Assembly: GCA_017463155.1 (NCBI GenBank)
Contig: JAFTPT010000016.1
Span: 1-46,696, forward strand
Origin: Blautia sp.
GTDB lineage: Bacteria; Bacillota; Clostridia; Lachnospirales; Lachnospiraceae
DNA: 46,696 nt
Direction: 5' to 3'
A program made the translations under genes and the position numbers. The notes under the pieces are model-generated. The model was given only the letters and a program-made list of their open reading frames with translations, did no database searches and had not been told where the DNA came from. Each line of letters starts with the position of its first letter. Position 1 is the first letter of the stretch. This document shows positions 1 through 27,888 of the stretch, piece by piece.

Positions 1-139
1 AAGACTGATACAGAGCGGCTTCTATGATTTGGCCACAGCGTACCAGTCGGTGCACGTCAACTATTGAAAGCGCCGTATACGAGAACCGTACGTACGGTGC
101 TGTGAGAGGACGGGGGGTAATCACCCCCTCCTACTCGAT
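1..139 (+). mobile_element. 3' end of a group II intron (domains V and VI)
   Basis: Only the tail of the intron lies in the window. Positions about 68-101 fold as a domain V hairpin: AGCGCCGTA at its base pairs with TACGGTGCT, with an AGAA-type loop and a small 3' bulge, and the AGC catalytic triad is at the base. The next hairpin (about 103-137) has a GGGGGG/CCCCC stem and an unpaired A inside CCTACTC opposite GAGAGG, as expected for the domain VI branch-point adenosine. The intron should end at the AT at 138-139. It sits immediately upstream of the ribosome site of the cupin gene, so that gene's 5' leader was the insertion target. The 5' part lies outside the window. Confidence 0.85.
2..67 (+). 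CDS. Group II intron reverse transcriptase/maturase, C-terminal tail (partial)
   Basis: An open frame enters from the left edge and ends at TGA 65-67, just before intron domain V, which is where intron-encoded proteins normally stop. The visible tail ends FYDLATAYQSVHVNY. Only about 21 residues are present, so no catalytic motif can be checked. The identification rests on position inside the intron more than on the sequence. If complete, the protein would assist intron splicing and retro-mobility. Confidence 0.6.
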   Translation, partial: RLIQSGFYDLATAYQSVHVNY

Positions 140-15174: not shown

Positions 15175-15391
15175 AAATGGAAAAGAGCTAGTCAAAAGAA
15201 ACTCAGTCCAATAAGTTGGAACAATAAATAACTCGAGAAGGGTGTGCAACAAAATAGATAATAAGAACATATTGAGCTAATCATTGTTGTGTGATAAATT
15301 ATATTTGGGTGCTGCCATAGAAGGTAGGCGGTTAGCCCTCTGCGGAGGGCGTTTCTTGAGCCCTCCGGCGAAAGAAAGGAGGGCGATGCAA

Positions 15392-15487
15392 ATGGACGTA
15401 ATCGAATTGATGACGGTTTTGGGCTACACGTTTACCGTGTTTTTCGCCGGAATCACTTTAGGTGCGTTTTTGAGTAAAAGAAAATGA
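15392..15487 (+). CDS. Small hydrophobic holin-like toxin, copy 1
   Basis: 31 residues: MDVIELMTVLGYTFTVFFAG, then ITLGAFLSKRK, a single membrane helix with a basic tail. This fits the putative holin-like toxins of type I systems (TxpA/BsrG-like in size and layout), which damage the membrane when overproduced. GGAGG at 15378-15382 has ideal spacing to ATG 15392; ATG 15386 would be only three bases away. The ribosome site is paired in the leader (GCCCTCC 15360-15366 with GGAGGGC 15378-15384), and an alternative hairpin lies at 15335-15350. Such occlusion is typical of type I toxin messages. The stop codon lies inside the hairpin shared with the antisense RNA. Confidence 0.7.
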   Translation: MDVIELMTVLGYTFTVFFAGITLGAFLSKRK

Positions 15488-15563
15488 CCGCCCTCCAGCT
15501 AAGGTTAACGGTCATTTTCTTTTAAGTTAACAGGGCTAGCCGTCTATCGGCAGTACCTTTTAT
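15476..15563 (-). ncRNA. Antisense antitoxin RNA, copy 1
   Basis: Predicted from the consensus minus-strand promoter at 15570-15598, starting near 15563. It is convergent with the toxin message and overlaps its 3' end, including the stop codon and the 15-bp hairpin formed by 15476-15490 and 15509-15523. This is the arrangement of TxpA/RatA-type systems, where the RNA pairs with the toxin transcript 3' end and blocks it. The exact 3' end cannot be read from sequence. Confidence 0.65.
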
Positions 15564-15569
15564 GCATTT

Positions 15570-15598
15570 ACTATAGCATACGGAATCTTACATGTCAA
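15570..15598 (-). promoter_or_regulatory. Consensus promoter of antisense RNA copy 1
   Basis: On the minus strand TTGACA (complement of 15593-15598), a 17-base spacer, TATAGT (complement of 15570-15575). Confidence 0.85.
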
Positions 15599-15693
15599 TT
15601 ACAGCGGGATGGTCAAAAGGATTCCGAGGGATTCCAGAAGGATTTCAGTCCAATAAACTGGAATGATAAATTACTTGATGGAAGGAGAAGTAT

Positions 15694-15936
15694 ATGACAC
15701 TTGAGGAACGAGATGAACGGATGCGCGAAGAGGGCCGTGAAGAAGGCCGTATGGAAACGCTGGTATCATTGGTGTGCAAACAACTTTCCAAAGGAAAAAC
15801 ACCGCAGGAGATCGCGGAGATTCTGGACATGGACCTTTCTGTAATTCAGAAAATCTGCGATACAGCGGCGGACTTTGCATCGGAGTATCCGATCGATGAT
15901 ATTATGGCTGCTCTTGAAGAAAAAGAATGGATATGA
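15694..15936 (+). CDS. Free-standing Rpn C-terminal protein (candidate detached antitoxin)
   Basis: 80 residues: MTLEERDERMREEG, two REEG-type repeat units, then METLVSLVCKQLSKGKTPQE and a conserved tail ending MAALEEKEWI. It is nearly identical to the last 90 residues of the full Rpn protein at 25782-26714 and begins at the equivalent internal methionine (ATG 26442 there). GAAGGAG lies six bases before the ATG, and codons are intact, so it is probably a working gene and not decay. Rpn nucleases are known in E. coli to be held in check by short C-terminal products made from internal starts. A separate gene for this piece suggests a detached antitoxin or an anti-addiction gene. It lies between the two toxin repeats; a 37-base motif shared with them precedes it. 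Confidence 0.7.
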   Translation: MTLEERDERMREEGREEGRMETLVSLVCKQLSKGKTPQEIAEILDMDLSVIQKICDTAADFASEYPIDDIMAALEEKEWI

Positions 15937-16209
15937 AAAGAGCAGGATCACGAAAACTGAAAACATATTTGTATTCAATTGTATATGAGTTGGTTGTCCA
16001 TCAGGGGGGATTCAAAGAAACTCAGTCCAATAAGTTGGAACAATAAATAACTCGAGAAGTGAGTGCAACAAAACAAATGATAAGAACATATTGAGCTAAC
16101 CATTATTATATGATAAATTATAGTTGGTGCTGCCATAGAAGGTAGGCGGTTGGCCCTCTGCGGAGGGCTTTTCTTAAACCCTCCGACGAAAGAAAGGAGG
16201 GCGATGCGA

Positions 16210-16305
16210 ATGAACGTAATCGAACTGATGACTGTTCTTGGATACACGTTTACTGTGTTTTTCGCTGGAGTCACCGTAGGTGCGTTTTTAAGCAAAAGAA
16301 AATGA
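16210..16305 (+). CDS. Small hydrophobic holin-like toxin, copy 2
   Basis: 31 residues, differing from copy 1 at three positions (N for D at 2, V for I at 21, V for L at 23), all conservative for a membrane helix with a SKRK tail. GGAGG sits nine bases before ATG 16210 and is again opposed by CCCTCC upstream, so translation is probably blocked in the full-length message. Conservation of the protein against drift at the leader suggests selection on the peptide. See copy 1 for the proposed role. Confidence 0.7.
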   Translation: MNVIELMTVLGYTFTVFFAGVTVGAFLSKRK

Positions 16306-16380
16306 CCGCCCCTAGCCCAAGGATTGCGGTCAATTTCTTTGAGTAACCAGGGCTGACCGTTTATCGGCAGCACCTTTCAT
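16294..16380 (-). ncRNA. Antisense antitoxin RNA, copy 2
   Basis: Predicted from the promoter at 16387-16415. It overlaps the 3' end of toxin copy 2. The hairpin arms (16294-16308 and about 16327-16340) differ by one base pair and a shorter end compared with copy 1. Enough sequence difference exists from copy 1 that each RNA may prefer its own toxin. Confidence 0.6.
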
Positions 16381-16386
16381 GCATCT

Positions 16387-16415
16387 ACTATAGCATATGG
16401 AATCTGATATGTCAA
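16387..16415 (-). promoter_or_regulatory. Consensus promoter of antisense RNA copy 2
   Basis: On the minus strand TTGACA (complement of 16410-16415), a 17-base spacer, TATAGT (complement of 16387-16392). Confidence 0.85.
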
Positions 16416-16581: not shown

Positions 16582-16683
16582 AAACAACATATACGCTCGT
16601 TCTCGCAGCCTTTCTGTAAAATGAAGGCATGGAGCTTTCCAGAATACGATATGTAAAAAATGAACACAATGATTCTGACGTTA

Positions 16684-16712
16684 TTGACAATTATAGACAC
16701 ATTGATTATAAT
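16684..16712 (+). promoter_or_regulatory. Perfect consensus promoter of the XRE-ImmA operon
   Basis: TTGACA at 16684-16689, a 17-base spacer, TATAAT at 16707-16712. Transcription should begin near 16719, which excludes an ATG at 16629 as the start of the XRE protein. Confidence 0.9.
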
Positions 16713-16754
16713 AAAAATGATAGTGATCATTTAGTTATGGAAATGGAGAGTTGT

Positions 16755-17279
16755 ATGCTTTCAAGATGGGTTTTAACGGAAGAAGAACGGGACAAATACA
16801 TAGATGCATTGACGGAAGAACTCACGGTGCTCCGGGTAAAGGTGGGTATCTCGCAGAGTGATCTGTGCAATATGATCGGTGTATCCAGACAGACTTACTC
16901 CGCAATCGAGAACAGCCGTAAACGGATGACATGGCCGACTTACCTGTCGTTGGTTTATTTTTATGACTCCATGAGTGCCACGCGGGACATGCTGCGGAGT
17001 TCTCCTGCATATCCAAAGGAACTGCTGTATCGTCTGAATGATGGAAAGAGCCCGGAGGCAGGCCTTTTTGGACAGACGGACTTGAACGACATACTGAAAG
17101 AACTGGATGACCAGGCCATGCATTCTCTTCGTACAATGATTCTGGTAGAATATGCGCGCTGCAAGAAGCTGCCGGGAGATGTTGTAGTGAAAGCCTATGA
17201 AGGGGTGAATTTTATGGAGGCTGCCCCGGACGCTGCTACAGAAACCGCATTGCAGAATATCAGGAACAGAAAGAAATGA
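16755..17279 (+). CDS. XRE-family transcriptional regulator
   Basis: 174 residues from ATG 16755. The helix-turn-helix is at about residues 20-75 (LRVKVGISQSDLCNMIGVSRQTYSAIENSRKRMTWPTYLSL); the rest is a helical C-terminal part of unknown role. The start is placed by GGAG six bases upstream and by the consensus promoter at 16684-16712; two other ATGs (16737, 16743) lack a ribosome site. The stop overlaps the ImmA gene start in ATGA, so the two are coupled. This pairing of XRE repressor and ImmA peptidase is the classic switch of ICEBs1 and related elements, where the peptidase destroys the repressor. No integrase is visible near it. Confidence 0.85.
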   Translation: MLSRWVLTEEERDKYIDALTEELTVLRVKVGISQSDLCNMIGVSRQTYSAIENSRKRMTWPTYLSLVYFYDSMSATRDMLRSSPAYPKELLYRLNDGKSPEAGLFGQTDLNDILKELDDQAMHSLRTMILVEYARCKKLPGDVVVKAYEGVNFMEAAPDAATETALQNIRNRKK

Positions 17280-17953
17280 ACAGCACAGAGATAAAGAAGC
17301 TGGTTCGAAGATTCCGGTCCGAGTACAAAATAAAAGAAGTCACGGCAAGTTCTTTGGAAACAATATTTCAGAAGCAGGGTTTTACGATCGTGGAATTTAA
17401 TCCGGTATTGAATGACCCTGATGTTTCCACGGTTATAGAGAATCTTGGCCTGACGGACATGGTTCGCCGCTCAAACGGATTTCTTTATATGGATTCGAAC
17501 TACCGCCTGGTTTTTGTAAATGAAAAGCTGAACGAGGATGAGCGGAAGATCGTTCTGGCACATGAAGAAGGTCATTATCTTTGCGGACATGCATTTACAA
17601 GAGAAGTTGTGGGTCGGAATGTGGCTGAAGAACAGGAGGCGAATGAGTTTTCTCATTACCTGTTACAGGATCCGGTCAATGTCCGCGCATCAAGGGCAAT
17701 ATCCCGTTACAAAAAGCCGTTGATCATCGGTGCCGTTGTAGCCGGGCTTGCGGGCGGAGGCAGTGCGGTCTCCCGGGAATACCGTGAGCAACAGTTGTAC
17801 CAAGGTGAGTACTATGTGACTATGCATGGGGAGAAATATCACAAAAAGAATTGCGTAACGATCGAAGGACATGAAGTCAGACGATTGACAAAGGAAGATG
17901 TTGAATCGGGCAAATATGAACCGTGCAGCGTCTGCCAGCCGGACGAGGATTAA
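17276..17953 (+). CDS. ImmA/IrrE-type metallopeptidase with membrane span and Cys/His tail
   Basis: 225 residues. The zinc-peptidase core is at about 85-130: LAHEEGHYLCGH (HExxH) and a downstream EEQEANEFSHYLL helix supplying the third ligand. A membrane span (KPLIIGAVVAGLAGGGSAVS, about 146-165) and a terminal module with KYHKKNC and YEPCSVC follow. Ordinary ImmA proteins are soluble and lack both additions. The C-terminal Cys/His module is shared with the next protein and the Ig-like protein, suggesting a common ligand or metal. The topology puts either the peptidase or the module outside; cytosolic peptidase with external module is more likely given an XRE target. The gene overlaps the XRE gene by four bases and is followed by the MBL gene after 16. 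Confidence 0.85.
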   Translation: MNSTEIKKLVRRFRSEYKIKEVTASSLETIFQKQGFTIVEFNPVLNDPDVSTVIENLGLTDMVRRSNGFLYMDSNYRLVFVNEKLNEDERKIVLAHEEGHYLCGHAFTREVVGRNVAEEQEANEFSHYLLQDPVNVRASRAISRYKKPLIIGAVVAGLAGGGSAVSREYREQQLYQGEYYVTMHGEKYHKKNCVTIEGHEVRRLTKEDVESGKYEPCSVCQPDED

Positions 17954-19136: not shown

Positions 19137-20234
19137 ATGAAAAAGCAAATTGGTTTACTATTGGCATTATGTCTGATGACTGCACATGGAACCAGTGTAT
19201 CTGGCTCTGACATAACGTATGTTGAAGATCATATTGGCAGCTTATACTATGAGGTCCCGAACATAGCATCAGATCAGATTCGTGAAAACGAAGATAGTAA
19301 GTTTTATAATGGAGATGGCTATATAATCGGAACAATGTTCACTCCTCTTGATATGGACGTCTCAGGTACGGCTACCACAGCGTATGCGGATGCAATCTGG
19401 TGCGGGGATGGTGTTGGTATCCTTTTGGTGACATTCCCGAAGGATTCCTCAGAGCAAATGAAAACGACGTGTAAAGAAATTTTCGAACATATGGGTCAGA
19501 CCGTATATTCGGAAGACTGGACAGAAGAACCGACGGGAATCACCTTTGAGGGCACCTCGAGTACGAATGATGAAGAGCCTGCTTCATTGATCTCTGCAGC
19601 AGGTGCCTCTCGGGAGACATCAACAGGATCAGCTTCAACAGGCGAAGCAAATGCCCTGTCCCGTGCAGAATCGTATTTGAAATTCTCCGCATTTTCACAT
19701 GAAGGCCTTGTTGATCAGCTTGAATTTGAAGGCTTTTCTCATGAAGAAGCCGTGTATGGAGCTGATCATTGTGGAGCAGATTGGAATGAGCAGGCAGCTC
19801 AGAAAGCGAAATCCTATCTGTCGTTTTCTTCATTCTCAAAGAGCAGCCTGATTGAACAATTAGAATATGAGGGCTTTACTAATGAACAGGCTGAATATGG
19901 AGCCGAACACTGTGGAAGCGATTGGGATGGCTCTCAGACTGGCGTTTCAGCGGGGATGGAGAATGCACTTAAGAAGGCGGAATCTTATCTGAAATATTCT
20001 GCATTTTCCTATGAAGGCCTGGTCGATCAACTGGAATTTGAGGACTTCTCTCATGAGGAAGCCGTATACGGAGCTGATAACTGCGGAGCGGATTGGAATG
20101 AGCAGGCTGCTCTAAAGGCAGAATCTTATCTGAAGTATTCTTCATTTTCAAGAAGTGATCTGATCGGACAGCTGGAATTTGACGGCTTTACACATGCACA
20201 GGCGGAATACGGAGTGAATGCGGTGGGGTATTGA
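19137..20234 (+). CDS. Ltp-type repeat protein (four host-cell-surface lipoprotein repeats)
   Basis: 365 residues. A signal peptide (residues 1-22) has no clean lipobox. A globular region of about 110 residues and a Ser/Thr-rich linker lead to four tandem repeats of about 45-50 residues (from about residue 170 to the end) of the form SYLKFSAFSHEGLVDQLEFE, GFSHEEAVYGADHCGADWNE. These match the Ltp repeat family (PF07553 type). In phage TP-J34 the Ltp lipoprotein blocks phage DNA injection. Repeats 1 and 3 are most alike, as are 2 and 4, which suggests duplication of a pair. AAGGAGG lies seven bases before the ATG. Likely role is surface binding or superinfection exclusion, by analogy only. Confidence 0.75.
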   Translation: MKKQIGLLLALCLMTAHGTSVSGSDITYVEDHIGSLYYEVPNIASDQIRENEDSKFYNGDGYIIGTMFTPLDMDVSGTATTAYADAIWCGDGVGILLVTFPKDSSEQMKTTCKEIFEHMGQTVYSEDWTEEPTGITFEGTSSTNDEEPASLISAAGASRETSTGSASTGEANALSRAESYLKFSAFSHEGLVDQLEFEGFSHEEAVYGADHCGADWNEQAAQKAKSYLSFSSFSKSSLIEQLEYEGFTNEQAEYGAEHCGSDWDGSQTGVSAGMENALKKAESYLKYSAFSYEGLVDQLEFEDFSHEEAVYGADNCGADWNEQAALKAESYLKYSSFSRSDLIGQLEFDGFTHAQAEYGVNAVGY

Positions 20235-25514: not shown

Positions 25515-25781
25515 ATCAGTAAGCAAGTCTAATCTTCTAACACAGCAGATCCTGCTGTTCAAAGTGGAGTTCTCCACGGTTACCCTTGCTGGAAAACATA
25601 ATATCGGCAGGGAGCCGTTGGAGCGTATCTAGATATGAGGATGGGTTGCTTTTGTGTACTCCTCTAATAACGCATGTTATTATCTGATCACGTCTGGCGG
25701 ATGCCAGTGCTGTCAGCCACTCACGCTTCGCGTTCGCGGGACAGTACTAGGCTCCCTGACCACCACAGAAGGGAGTACTTT
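25515..25781 (+). other. Long structured leader of the rpn gene
   Basis: No gene is seen in this stretch. It holds several short hairpins (for example CAGCAGATCCTGCTG near 25543). The last one (25743-25779) pairs CTCCCT at 25752-25757 with AGGGAG at 25770-25775, which is the ribosome site of the rpn gene, and adds an outer AGTA/TACT pairing. Translation of the full-length nuclease may therefore be restrained while the internal start stays open. Confidence 0.45.
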
Positions 25782-26714
25782 ATGGAAAAAACGAGAAACA
25801 CGGTCACAAACGGAAAAACAAATGCAGTTAAGCGGTACGAGGACCTTGATTTTACCGATGATTTTATGTTCTGCAAGATCCTGCAGAATAATCCGCAGCT
25901 CTGCAAAGAACTGACGGAACTGATCCTTGGAAAAAGGATTGGCGGGATCGTCCAGGTTGACCGTCAGGAATCTATTGAGATCACAGCCGATGGAAAAGGT
26001 GTTCGGTTTGACATCTATATGGAGGATGACGAGCAGACAGCCTACGACATTGAGATGCAAAAAGGGCTGTTCAAGGCGATTCCGAAACGTGCGAGATATT
26101 ATCAGGGAATGATCGATCTGAATCATCTGGAGCGTGGAGCACGGTATGAGGATCTGATGCCCTGCTATATTATCTTTATCTGTATGGAGAACCCGTTTCC
26201 GGAAGTGGGTTTGCATAAGTACACGTTCCGCAATGTCTGTGACGAGAAACCGGACCTTATACTGGAGGATGGTGCAGTCAAGGTGATTTTATCTGCGGAA
26301 GGAACGGCCGATGATGTTTCGGAAGAGATGAAAGGCTTTCTGAACTTTCTCACTAGCCGTCAGAGTAATACGGACTTGACCCGACGTTTGGCAGAGGAAG
26401 TGGAAAAAGCCAGGCGTCATGAGAGATGGAGGATGGAGTATATGACATTACAGGAACGGGATGAACGGATGCGTGAAGAGGGCCGAGAAGAAGGCCGAGA
26501 AGAAGGCCGAGAAGAAGGCCGAGAAGAAGGACGTATAGAAACGCTGGTATCGTTGGTGTGCAAACAACTTTCCAAAGGAAAAACACCGCAGGAGATCGCG
26601 GAGATTCTGGACATGGACCTCTTTGTAATTCAGAAAATCTGCGATACAGCGGCGGACTTTGCACCGGAGTATCCGATTAATGATATTATGGCGGCTCTTG
26701 AAGAAAAGATATGA
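25782..26714 (+). CDS. Rpn-family recombination-promoting nuclease (PD-(D/E)XK), full length
   Basis: 310 residues. The nuclease domain spans about 15-200: LDFTDDFMFCKILQNNP at the start, then FDIYMEDDEQTAYDIEMQKG, the PD-(D/E)XK-type active-site region with E-M-Q in place of E-x-K as is usual in this group. Rpn proteins cut DNA, promote recombination and can be toxic and anti-phage. The C-terminal part (about 205-310) holds RERW-type helices, five 12-base REEG repeats and a helical tail. An internal ATG at 26442 follows a good ribosome site (see separate entry). GGGAG seven bases ahead of ATG 25782 sets the start; the leader hairpin may hide it. Confidence 0.88.
   Translation: MEKTRNTVTNGKTNAVKRYEDLDFTDDFMFCKILQNNPQLCKELTELILGKRIGGIVQVDRQESIEITADGKGVRFDIYMEDDEQTAYDIEMQKGLFKAIPKRARYYQGMIDLNHLERGARYEDLMPCYIIFICMENPFPEVGLHKYTFRNVCDEKPDLILEDGAVKVILSAEGTADDVSEEMKGFLNFLTSRQSNTDLTRRLAEEVEKARRHERWRMEYMTLQERDERMREEGREEGREEGREEGREEGRIETLVSLVCKQLSKGKTPQEIAEILDMDLFVIQKICDTAADFAPEYPINDIMAALEEKI
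26442..26714 (+). CDS. Predicted intragenic C-terminal Rpn product (antitoxin-like)
   Basis: 90 residues in the same frame as the Rpn nuclease: MTLQERDERMREEG, the REEG repeats, then IETLVSLVCKQLSKGKTPQE to MAALEEKI. GGAGG at 26428-26432 stands nine bases before ATG 26442, as good as any true start in the window. In E. coli short Rpn products from internal starts bind and inhibit the long form. The free-standing gene at 15694 begins at exactly this methionine, which strongly supports its use as a start here. Confidence 0.65.
   Translation: MTLQERDERMREEGREEGREEGREEGREEGRIETLVSLVCKQLSKGKTPQEIAEILDMDLFVIQKICDTAADFAPEYPINDIMAALEEKI
26475..26534 (+). repeat. Five tandem 12-base units in rpn
   Basis: Five units of GAAGAAGGCCGA type (first GAAGAGGGCCGA, last GAAGAAGGACGT), each coding for REEG or EEGR. 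The free-standing copy at 15727-15750 has only two. Unit number thus varies between copies by whole multiples, keeping the reading frame. Confidence 0.9.
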
Positions 26715-27426: not shown

Positions 27427-27789
27427 ATGATGACGACAGTTTATTGTTATTCCAGATGTTCCACATGCAAGAAGGCCCTTAAATGGCTGGATGACAATCA
27501 GGTTGGGTATAAGGTGATCGATATCAAGGAGGACCATCCGGATGAAGCGACGCTTCGGAAGCTGCATGCGAAGAGCGGCCTTCCGCTGCGGAAGTTTTTT
27601 AACACCAGCGGGCAGCTTTACAGGGCGATGGAGCTTTCAAAGAAGCTGCCCGATATGAGCGAGGACGAGATGTTCAGGCTGCTTTCGTTGGACGGGATGC
27701 TGGTCAAGAGACCGCTTCTGATCACTGACGATAAAGTGCTGACGGGATTTAAAGAGGATGACTGGGAGGAAGTGCTTATTCACAGATGA
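27427..27789 (+). CDS. ArsC/Spx-family thioredoxin-fold protein
   Basis: 120 residues. CSTCKKALKWL near the N-terminus is the Cx2C active site, and the body (LRKFFNTSGQLYRAMELSKKLPDMSEDEMFRLLSLDGMLVKRPLLIT) has the cis-proline region of the ArsC/Spx/MgsR group. Members are arsenate reductases with thiol chemistry or RNA polymerase-binding redox regulators. The length and KRPLLIT fit the YffB/Spx-like branch better than true ArsC. GAAGGAGGT lies four to five bases before ATG 27427; ATG 27430 has slightly better spacing and would drop one residue. Confidence 0.8.
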   Translation: MMTTVYCYSRCSTCKKALKWLDDNQVGYKVIDIKEDHPDEATLRKLHAKSGLPLRKFFNTSGQLYRAMELSKKLPDMSEDEMFRLLSLDGMLVKRPLLITDDKVLTGFKEDDWEEVLIHR

Positions 27790-27794
27790 AGAAG

Positions 27795-27888
27795 ACTGTA
27801 ATTCGGAAATTCTGTGATGTGGAGTCCGGATTTGCACCGGAGTAACCGATCAATGACATTATGACTGCTCTTGAGGAAAAAGGTGTGA
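27795..27888 (+). pseudogene. Remnant of an Rpn C-terminus
   Basis: About 94 bases that align with the last 95 bases of the rpn gene (TCCGGATTTGCACCGGAGTA, then TTATGACTGCTCTTGAGG), but with changed codons and a TAA in place of the TAT in the conserved EYPI stretch. It directly precedes the UPF0158 gene. This is a third trace of Rpn material in 12 kb. Confidence 0.7.

What the first reader, a model, noticed from the sequence alone, without database searches (positions are those of the whole stretch)
25782..26714. Rpn nuclease gene with a probable intragenic antitoxin start
ATG 26442 lies in frame inside rpn, nine bases after GGAGG, and would give a 90-residue C-terminal protein. In E. coli, short internal Rpn products inhibit the toxic anti-phage long form. 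The long form here also has a leader hairpin over its ribosome site, so the short product may be favoured.
Basis: partly seen in the sequence, partly recalled or inferred. Interest (0 to 1): 0.82.

Follow-up and report, generated by a model that had tools for sequence, protein, structure and literature searches.

The report
Nuclease gene hiding its own antitoxin
A bacterial DNA-cutting defence gene very likely carries, inside its own end, a second start that makes a small protein to keep it in check, and a separate copy of that small protein lies about 10 kb away; this is a further example of a system already described in E. coli.

Summary
The gene at 25782-26714 is an Rpn nuclease. ATG 26442 is in frame (codon 221), nine bases after GGAGG, and gives 90 residues. 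This is not chance. Of 67 homologues from a family-wide search, 65 have Met at or within three residues of the site. GGAGG precedes 55 of those 65, against 18 of 390 other in-frame ATGs. In 50 of 50 genomes the ribosome-site match beats the mean of synonymous shuffles. A profile alignment puts this Met on the internal start of E. coli RpnE. It has three fewer four-residue repeats than the long form. By published E. coli data such a mismatch should stop it neutralising its neighbour. No pair examined was matched: 0 of 10 intact copies in relatives, 0 of 14 E. coli records. The leader hairpin is weakly supported and partly made by a dispersed repeat. Verdict: a new member of a known kind (RpnL/RpnS). 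The unmatched spare antitoxins are the open question.

The parts
25782..26714 (+). rpn gene, long form RpnL (310 aa): PD-(D/E)XK nuclease domain, then a long helix with REEG repeats and C-terminal helices
25769..25775 (+). ribosome-binding site AAGGGAG of the long form, 6 nt before ATG 25782
25751..25776 (+). predicted leader hairpin (UCCCU with AGGGA, up to 7 pairs); most of its 5' arm is the end of a dispersed repeat; weak support
26428..26432 (+). internal ribosome-binding site GGAGG, 9 nt before ATG 26442
26442..26714 (+). nested gene for the short form RpnS (90 aa), predicted antitoxin
26472..26531 (+). five four-residue repeats (REEG), 12-nt period; within the long helix predicted at residues 214-264
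15694..15936 (+). free-standing rpnS copy (80 aa), starts at the equivalent ATG, two REEG repeats instead of five
15682..15687 (+). ribosome-binding site AAGGAG of the free-standing rpnS, 6 nt before its ATG; in-frame TGA at 15676-15678 rules out an upstream extension
27783..27881 (+). decayed remnant of a further rpn tail (in-frame stop; the start region is missing)

Best explanation
The gene is an Rpn toxin-antitoxin gene-within-a-gene. The full ORF makes RpnL, a DNA nuclease with a C-terminal dimerising tail. A second ribosome site, GGAGG + 9 nt + ATG 26442, starts RpnS, the tail alone. RpnS is predicted to pair with the RpnL tail through the long repeat-bearing helix and keep the nuclease off until phage or another stress releases it. 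The free-standing rpnS at 15694-15936 is a duplicated ribosome-site-plus-RpnS module that makes its own small protein. With three fewer repeats it is predicted not to neutralise this RpnL, so it would be an orphan, out-of-register antitoxin. Shown by sequence: the ORFs, the ribosome sites, their conservation, and duplicates that start at the same point. Inferred: translation (shown for E. coli genes and one C. difficile gene), and binding, inhibition and phage defence (shown for some E. coli Rpn proteins).
For: Rpn family match. Family-wide set of 74 loci, 67 with a full ORF: Met at or within 3 residues of the site in 65 of 67; GGAGG within 20 nt in 55 of 65 against 18 of 390 upstream in-frame ATGs; in 50 of 50 genomes the site is stronger than its own synonymous-shuffle mean (Wilcoxon 9e-16); the Arg codon in W-R is AGG in 39 of 40 against 110 of 697 other Arg codons. 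GGAGG is kept under WRxEYM, MEERYM, LEVDYM and KEAYM, in different codon phases. The profile alignment places Met221 on the Met of E. coli RpnE's KERLMTIAER, also the first residue of ypaA. Of 13 distinct tail copies beside a parent gene that cover the site, 13 keep ATG with a ribosome-site energy of -7 or lower, and 10 keep an intact frame. The window copy starts exactly there with AAGGAG and a preceding in-frame TGA. The predicted structure has a long helix 214-264 and three helices after it, broadly like RpnAS as described in PMC10327210.
Against: No expression, toxicity or phage data for this gene or close relatives. No solved structure by sequence; Foldseek gave no PDB match at E <= 0.001. 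No PADLOC model matches it. No + strand promoter-like site in or before the gene. Single genes are mostly not significant in the shuffle test (8 of 53 at p<0.05); the strength is in the set, whose members are related. E. coli Rpn proteins fall in another Pfam family (PF04754), and RefSeq calls E. coli RpnE inactive. Two of 67 family homologues lack Met near the site; eight of 61 lack it, seven of them Treponema sequences with Arg there and one paralogue with Leu.
Confidence: 0.86

Rival explanations
1. The internal start is real and makes the short tail protein, but the short form is a structural subunit or assembly partner of the nuclease rather than an inhibitor, as for Cas11d made inside the cas10d gene.
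For: The sequence only shows that a second start is selected for. Mixed oligomers are known: two RpnAS with two RpnAL (PMC10327210). The Cas11d example is given in the same paper.
Against: For RpnA, RpnB, RpnC and RpnP2 the short form blocks toxicity, SOS induction or DNA cleavage in the assays reported (PMC10327210), and the start here is in the aligned column of the E. coli start.
Confidence: 0.1
2. The GGAGG-ATG is a by-product of protein conservation (W-R-x-E-Y-M) and codon bias; there is no second product.
For: EYM is conserved at protein level, and shuffle tests of single genes are mostly not significant.
Against: The Arg codon is AGG in 39 of 40 against 16% elsewhere; GGAGG is kept under other residues and in another codon phase; 50 of 50 genomes beat their shuffle mean; tail copies start exactly there.
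Confidence: 0.03
3. The free-standing rpnS at 15694-15936 is a dead fragment left by duplication and decay, not a gene.
For: Other rpn tails in this genome are remnants (27783-27881, and two on contig C31 seen in L005 and L006). Its repeat number differs from its neighbour's. YN00 gives dN/dS about 0.5 for the pair. In relatives 3 of 13 copies have lost the frame.
Against: Intact ORF with its own AAGGAG, an in-frame stop just upstream, NG86 dN/dS 0.13-0.19; 10 of 13 such copies keep frame and ribosome site; E. coli ypaA, listed as a pseudogene in the MG1655 record, is made as a protein (PMC10327210).
Confidence: 0.3

Closest known systems
Rpn toxin-antitoxin genes of E. coli (RpnA-E, RpnP2); short product also seen for one C. 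difficile rpn (PMC10327210)
   Same: PD-(D/E)XK nuclease with a short C-terminal product from an internal start at the same alignment column; four-residue repeats shortly after the internal Met; separate copies of the tail gene near some parents
   Different: Other Pfam family (PF12784 here, PF04754 for RpnE); the tail copy lies about 10 kb upstream rather than directly downstream; toxicity, inhibition and phage defence untested here
E. coli rpnE-ypaA pair
   Same: Separate tail gene with its start at the internal-start point; repeat length different from the neighbour in 14 of 14 records examined
   Different: In E. coli the free tail also differs in its last residues from the RpnE beside it and equals the tail type of RpnE in the 7 single-gene records read; in the window the free tail is the same type as the RpnL tail
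Displaced orphan modules of contact-dependent inhibition and Rhs loci (recalled, not tested)
   Same: Old C-terminal parts persist beside the gene after a new tail is acquired
   Different: Here the kept part is an intracellular antitoxin with a built-in start, not an immunity gene for a secreted toxin

Membership tests
Rpn (RpnL/RpnS) toxin-antitoxin family | Belongs to the Rpn/putative transposase nuclease family | tested here: met
   TIGR01784 E 5e-33, above cut-off; the same model hits E. coli RpnE, E 1.7e-50
Rpn (RpnL/RpnS) toxin-antitoxin family | PD-(D/E)XK catalytic residues (RpnA D63, E82, Q84; passages of PMC5350276) | tested here: met
   D77 and E91 invariant in 19 of 19 sequences, Q93 in 17 of 19; equivalence to RpnA is by motif, RpnA itself was not aligned
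Rpn (RpnL/RpnS) toxin-antitoxin family | Internal translation start with ribosome site before the variable tail | tested here: met
   (by sequence, not by expression)
Rpn (RpnL/RpnS) toxin-antitoxin family | Four-residue repeats 8-20 residues after the short form's Met, in its first helix (PMC10327210) | tested here: met
   REEG x5 from residue 11 of the short form; helix 214-264 in the model
Rpn (RpnL/RpnS) toxin-antitoxin family | Long form toxic, short form neutralises it | not testable with these tools
   Needs expression tests
Rpn (RpnL/RpnS) toxin-antitoxin family | Anti-phage activity | not testable with these tools
   Needs plaque assays

The most novel reading that the evidence does not exclude
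Separate rpnS genes form a standing stock of out-of-register antitoxins: by displacement or recombination at the internal start, an RpnL can change its repeat number or tail while the old or next matching antitoxin is already encoded nearby. They would not be backups for the present nuclease but protection against past, future or incoming RpnL variants.
Probability: 0.2. Interest if true: 0.65.

Novelty: new member of a known kind. Interest (0 to 1): 0.42.

Why it matters
It extends, by nucleotide-level evidence across a bacterial family, the E. coli finding that Rpn nucleases encode their own antitoxin inside the gene. It gives a simple sequence rule (GGAGG, 8-9 nt, ATG at W-R-x-E-Y-M and its variants) for finding such antitoxins. 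It also points to a testable puzzle: separate antitoxin copies recur and keep their start sites, yet in no pair examined here do they match the neighbouring nuclease in repeat number.

Tried and rejected
Leader hairpin as a conserved control of RpnL: not supported. The 61-nt fold is within chance (z -1.03); the 98-nt fold is stronger than shuffles (z -2.39) but most of its pairs are upstream; the ribosome site opens in a wider context; most of the 5' arm is the end of a repeat found at five places in this genome, this one included. Leaders of relatives were not compared.

Phage-borne rpnS as counter-defence: no relative of the 80-aa form in viral contigs, no match of the 90-aa form in the phage records at E <= 0.01. 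The full protein gave 7 phage records with partial matches, at most 68% of the query, not followed. The full protein was not searched in viral contigs, nor either form in plasmids.

Internal promoter before the short form: no + strand site by consensus scan.

Long form broken but short form kept, as a sign of antitoxin selection: seen in six of ten loci looked at (L010, L039, L050, L140, L167, L177). Three printed nothing (L172, L184, L195) and one is a contig-edge case (L193). Breaks falling by chance in the longer N-terminal part would look the same, so this is not used.

Selection against matching repeat numbers: not claimed. In the E. coli records random pairing of the observed lengths would give about 1 match in 14 (own arithmetic), so 0 of 14 only shows that the copies are not kept in register.

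Structure match: Foldseek gave no PDB hit at E <= 0.001; the top weak hits include McrBC, EndoMS and EcoO109I, PD-(D/E)XK nucleases by recall.

Full report
Observation. The ORF 25782-26714 encodes 310 aa. ATG 26442 is in frame at codon 221, GGAGG lies at 26428-26432 with nine bases between, and the product has 90 residues. The protein is an Rpn nuclease by Pfam PDDEXK_2 and NCBIfam TIGR01784. A model from a 19-sequence alignment (mean pLDDT 85, pTM 0.68) has a mixed alpha/beta part, one long helix at 214-264 and three helices after it. Met221 lies in the long helix, followed after nine residues by five REEG repeats.

Is it more than chance? First set (loci): of 101 ORF rows, 61 passed as full-length, the window gene included. 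Met is at the site in 53. The eight without are seven Treponema sequences with Arg (from five genomes) and one paralogue with Leu. Mean ribosome-site energy is -10.9 against -7.3 for synonymous shuffles and -3.2 for other in-frame ATGs; 50 of 53 are below their own shuffle mean, but only 8 of 53 reach p<0.05 alone. GGAGG lies within 20 nt in 45 of 53 against 26 of 445 other ATGs. Part of this set was found with peptide patterns that included this motif, so I made a second set.

Second set: 250 genomes of the family, each from a different genus in the tool's table; 53 of 250 have a match at E <= 1e-40, the window's genome among them (the tool scored at most nine candidates per genome in most cases). 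All 74 matches outside the window's genome were fetched with flanks of up to 3 kb; 7 of 74 had no full ORF and were dropped. Some of these loci are the same as in the first set (for example L033 and L139). Of 67, 63 have Met in the exact column, 2 within three residues, 2 none. GGAGG precedes 55 of 65 against 18 of 390 upstream in-frame ATGs. With one gene per genome, 50 of 50 beat their shuffle mean (Wilcoxon 9e-16). The Arg after Trp is coded AGG in 39 of 40, against 110 of 697 other Arg codons in the same genes. GGAGG is also kept where the residues are MEERYM, LEVDYM or KEAYM, and in another codon phase. This is selection on nucleotides, as expected for a start site. Sequences related by descent are not independent, but they come from 50 genera.

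Relation to the proven system. In PMC10327210 (abstract, all of Results, Discussion and passages read) all five E. coli rpn genes make a short C-terminal protein from an internal start, and a C. difficile rpn cloned in E. coli does so too. The short form blocks toxicity (RpnA, RpnB, RpnP2), SOS induction (RpnA, RpnB) and DNA cleavage (RpnA). The repeats set the specificity: RpnC with one repeat more is no longer blocked by the original short form. A profile alignment of the window family with E. coli RpnE (hhalign probability 78%, E 1.8e-5) puts Met221 on the Met of KERLMTIAER, which is the first residue of ypaA as well.

The free-standing copy. In the same window 15694-15936 encodes 80 residues, 89% identical to the rpn tail and 79% with gap columns counted. 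It starts at the ATG equivalent to 26442, six bases after AAGGAG, with an in-frame TGA six codons upstream. Homology to rpn begins about 17 nt before its ATG, so what was copied is the ribosome site and the short form. It has two REEG repeats against five. NG86 dN/dS is 0.13-0.19, but YN00 gives about 0.5, so constraint is likely, not proven. It lies between the two copies of a direct duplication with 818-bp spacing, just after a third copy of a 44-nt box that heads both copies; the 33-nt core of the box has three matches in the genome at up to three mismatches, all here.

How common are such copies? Around 128 parent entries (some the same gene reached twice) there were 18 hits. Twelve cover the start, of which L033 and L139 are one locus; a second copy at L015 and one at L093, both, bring the distinct copies to 13. 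All 13 keep ATG and a ribosome site of -7 kcal/mol or lower. Ten keep an intact frame; L016, L132 and L194 do not. One of the ten (L139) lies in frame at the end of an unrelated ORF, so it is nested rather than free-standing, and L073 and L078 are close relatives of each other. The six hits that do not cover the start are L028, two mutual hits of full-length genes at L041, L157, L182 and the window remnant at 27783-27881. Not counted, because no intact parent lies in the locus or the start does not align: L053 (which keeps ATG and site), broken genes L010, L039, L050 and L055, and tail-like ORFs in L005/L006, L024, L094-L096, L098 and L099. NG86 dN/dS of eight pairs ranges from 0.06 to 0.54, pooled pN/pS 0.32. 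The ten intact copies all differ from the neighbouring long form in the length of the repeat part: window -12 aa, L015 -12 and +8, L139 -4, L073 +12, L078 -24, L146 +16, L093 about +12 by eye, L188 -11, L003 -7 in a heptad-like coil.

E. coli control. rpnE is found in 5,371 of 5,426 genomes. From 60 rows spread down that list I fetched 20 and added MG1655. In the 14 records with both genes, rpnE and ypaA differ in repeat length in 14 of 14, always by a multiple of four residues, in seven combinations; some of these records carry identical pairs. In the 7 records with a single gene, RpnE itself carries the tail type that is separate elsewhere, 7 of 7. The separate copies thus look like displaced or donor tails. 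PMC10327210 mentions downstream copies and fusion or loss; I did not find the repeat mismatch stated in the parts I read (its supplement was not available), nor a further paper on it in the listings. Random pairing would give about one match in 14, so avoidance is not shown.

Leader hairpin. A stem over the RpnL ribosome site is predicted, with low accessibility for 30-60 nt of context but mostly open with 80. The internal site is mostly open with 40 nt or more of context and largely closed with 30. Most of the 5' arm belongs to a repeat found at five places in the genome. It may lower RpnL translation in this strain; I have no evidence that it is a feature of the family.

Verdict. By sequence, a real internal start and a new member of the RpnL/RpnS kind, in what is probably a Lachnospiraceae genome (this name rests on record titles of the nearest relatives). 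Function is inferred. The new lead is the out-of-register separate copies.

Noticed in passing
L033:1486-3321 (same place as L139): An rpnS module with its ribosome site and ATG lies in frame at the 3' end of a 612-aa multi-membrane ORF that is not an Rpn, so the antitoxin start is nested in an unrelated gene.
   Followed up: partly
window 15195-15583 and 16014-16400: Direct duplication (spacing about 818 bp) of an element encoding a 33-aa hydrophobic peptide, type-I-toxin-like by recall; no Pfam match. The box at its head occurs a third time just before the free-standing rpnS; no other match in the genome at up to three mismatches.
   Followed up: partly
window 25659-25755: Dispersed intergenic repeat at five places in the genome; its end forms most of one arm of the leader hairpin of rpn.
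   Followed up: partly
window 16629-17953: HTH regulator followed by an IrrE-like metallopeptidase (weak capP match in PADLOC), a pair often seen in defence or mobile regions (recalled).
   Followed up: no
window 19137-20234: Protein with four Lipoprotein_Ltp stretches (PF07553), a family recalled for superinfection exclusion; with rpn it lies in a stretch of lower G+C (0.39-0.49) in a contig otherwise at 0.50-0.60.
   Followed up: no
L003 (G000:C50): A second, distant rpn in the same genome has its own downstream tail copy that keeps GGAGG-ATG; its repeat part differs by a seven-residue unit instead of four.
   Followed up: partly
window 68-139: Group II intron match (Rfam RF00029) at the contig start.
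   Followed up: no
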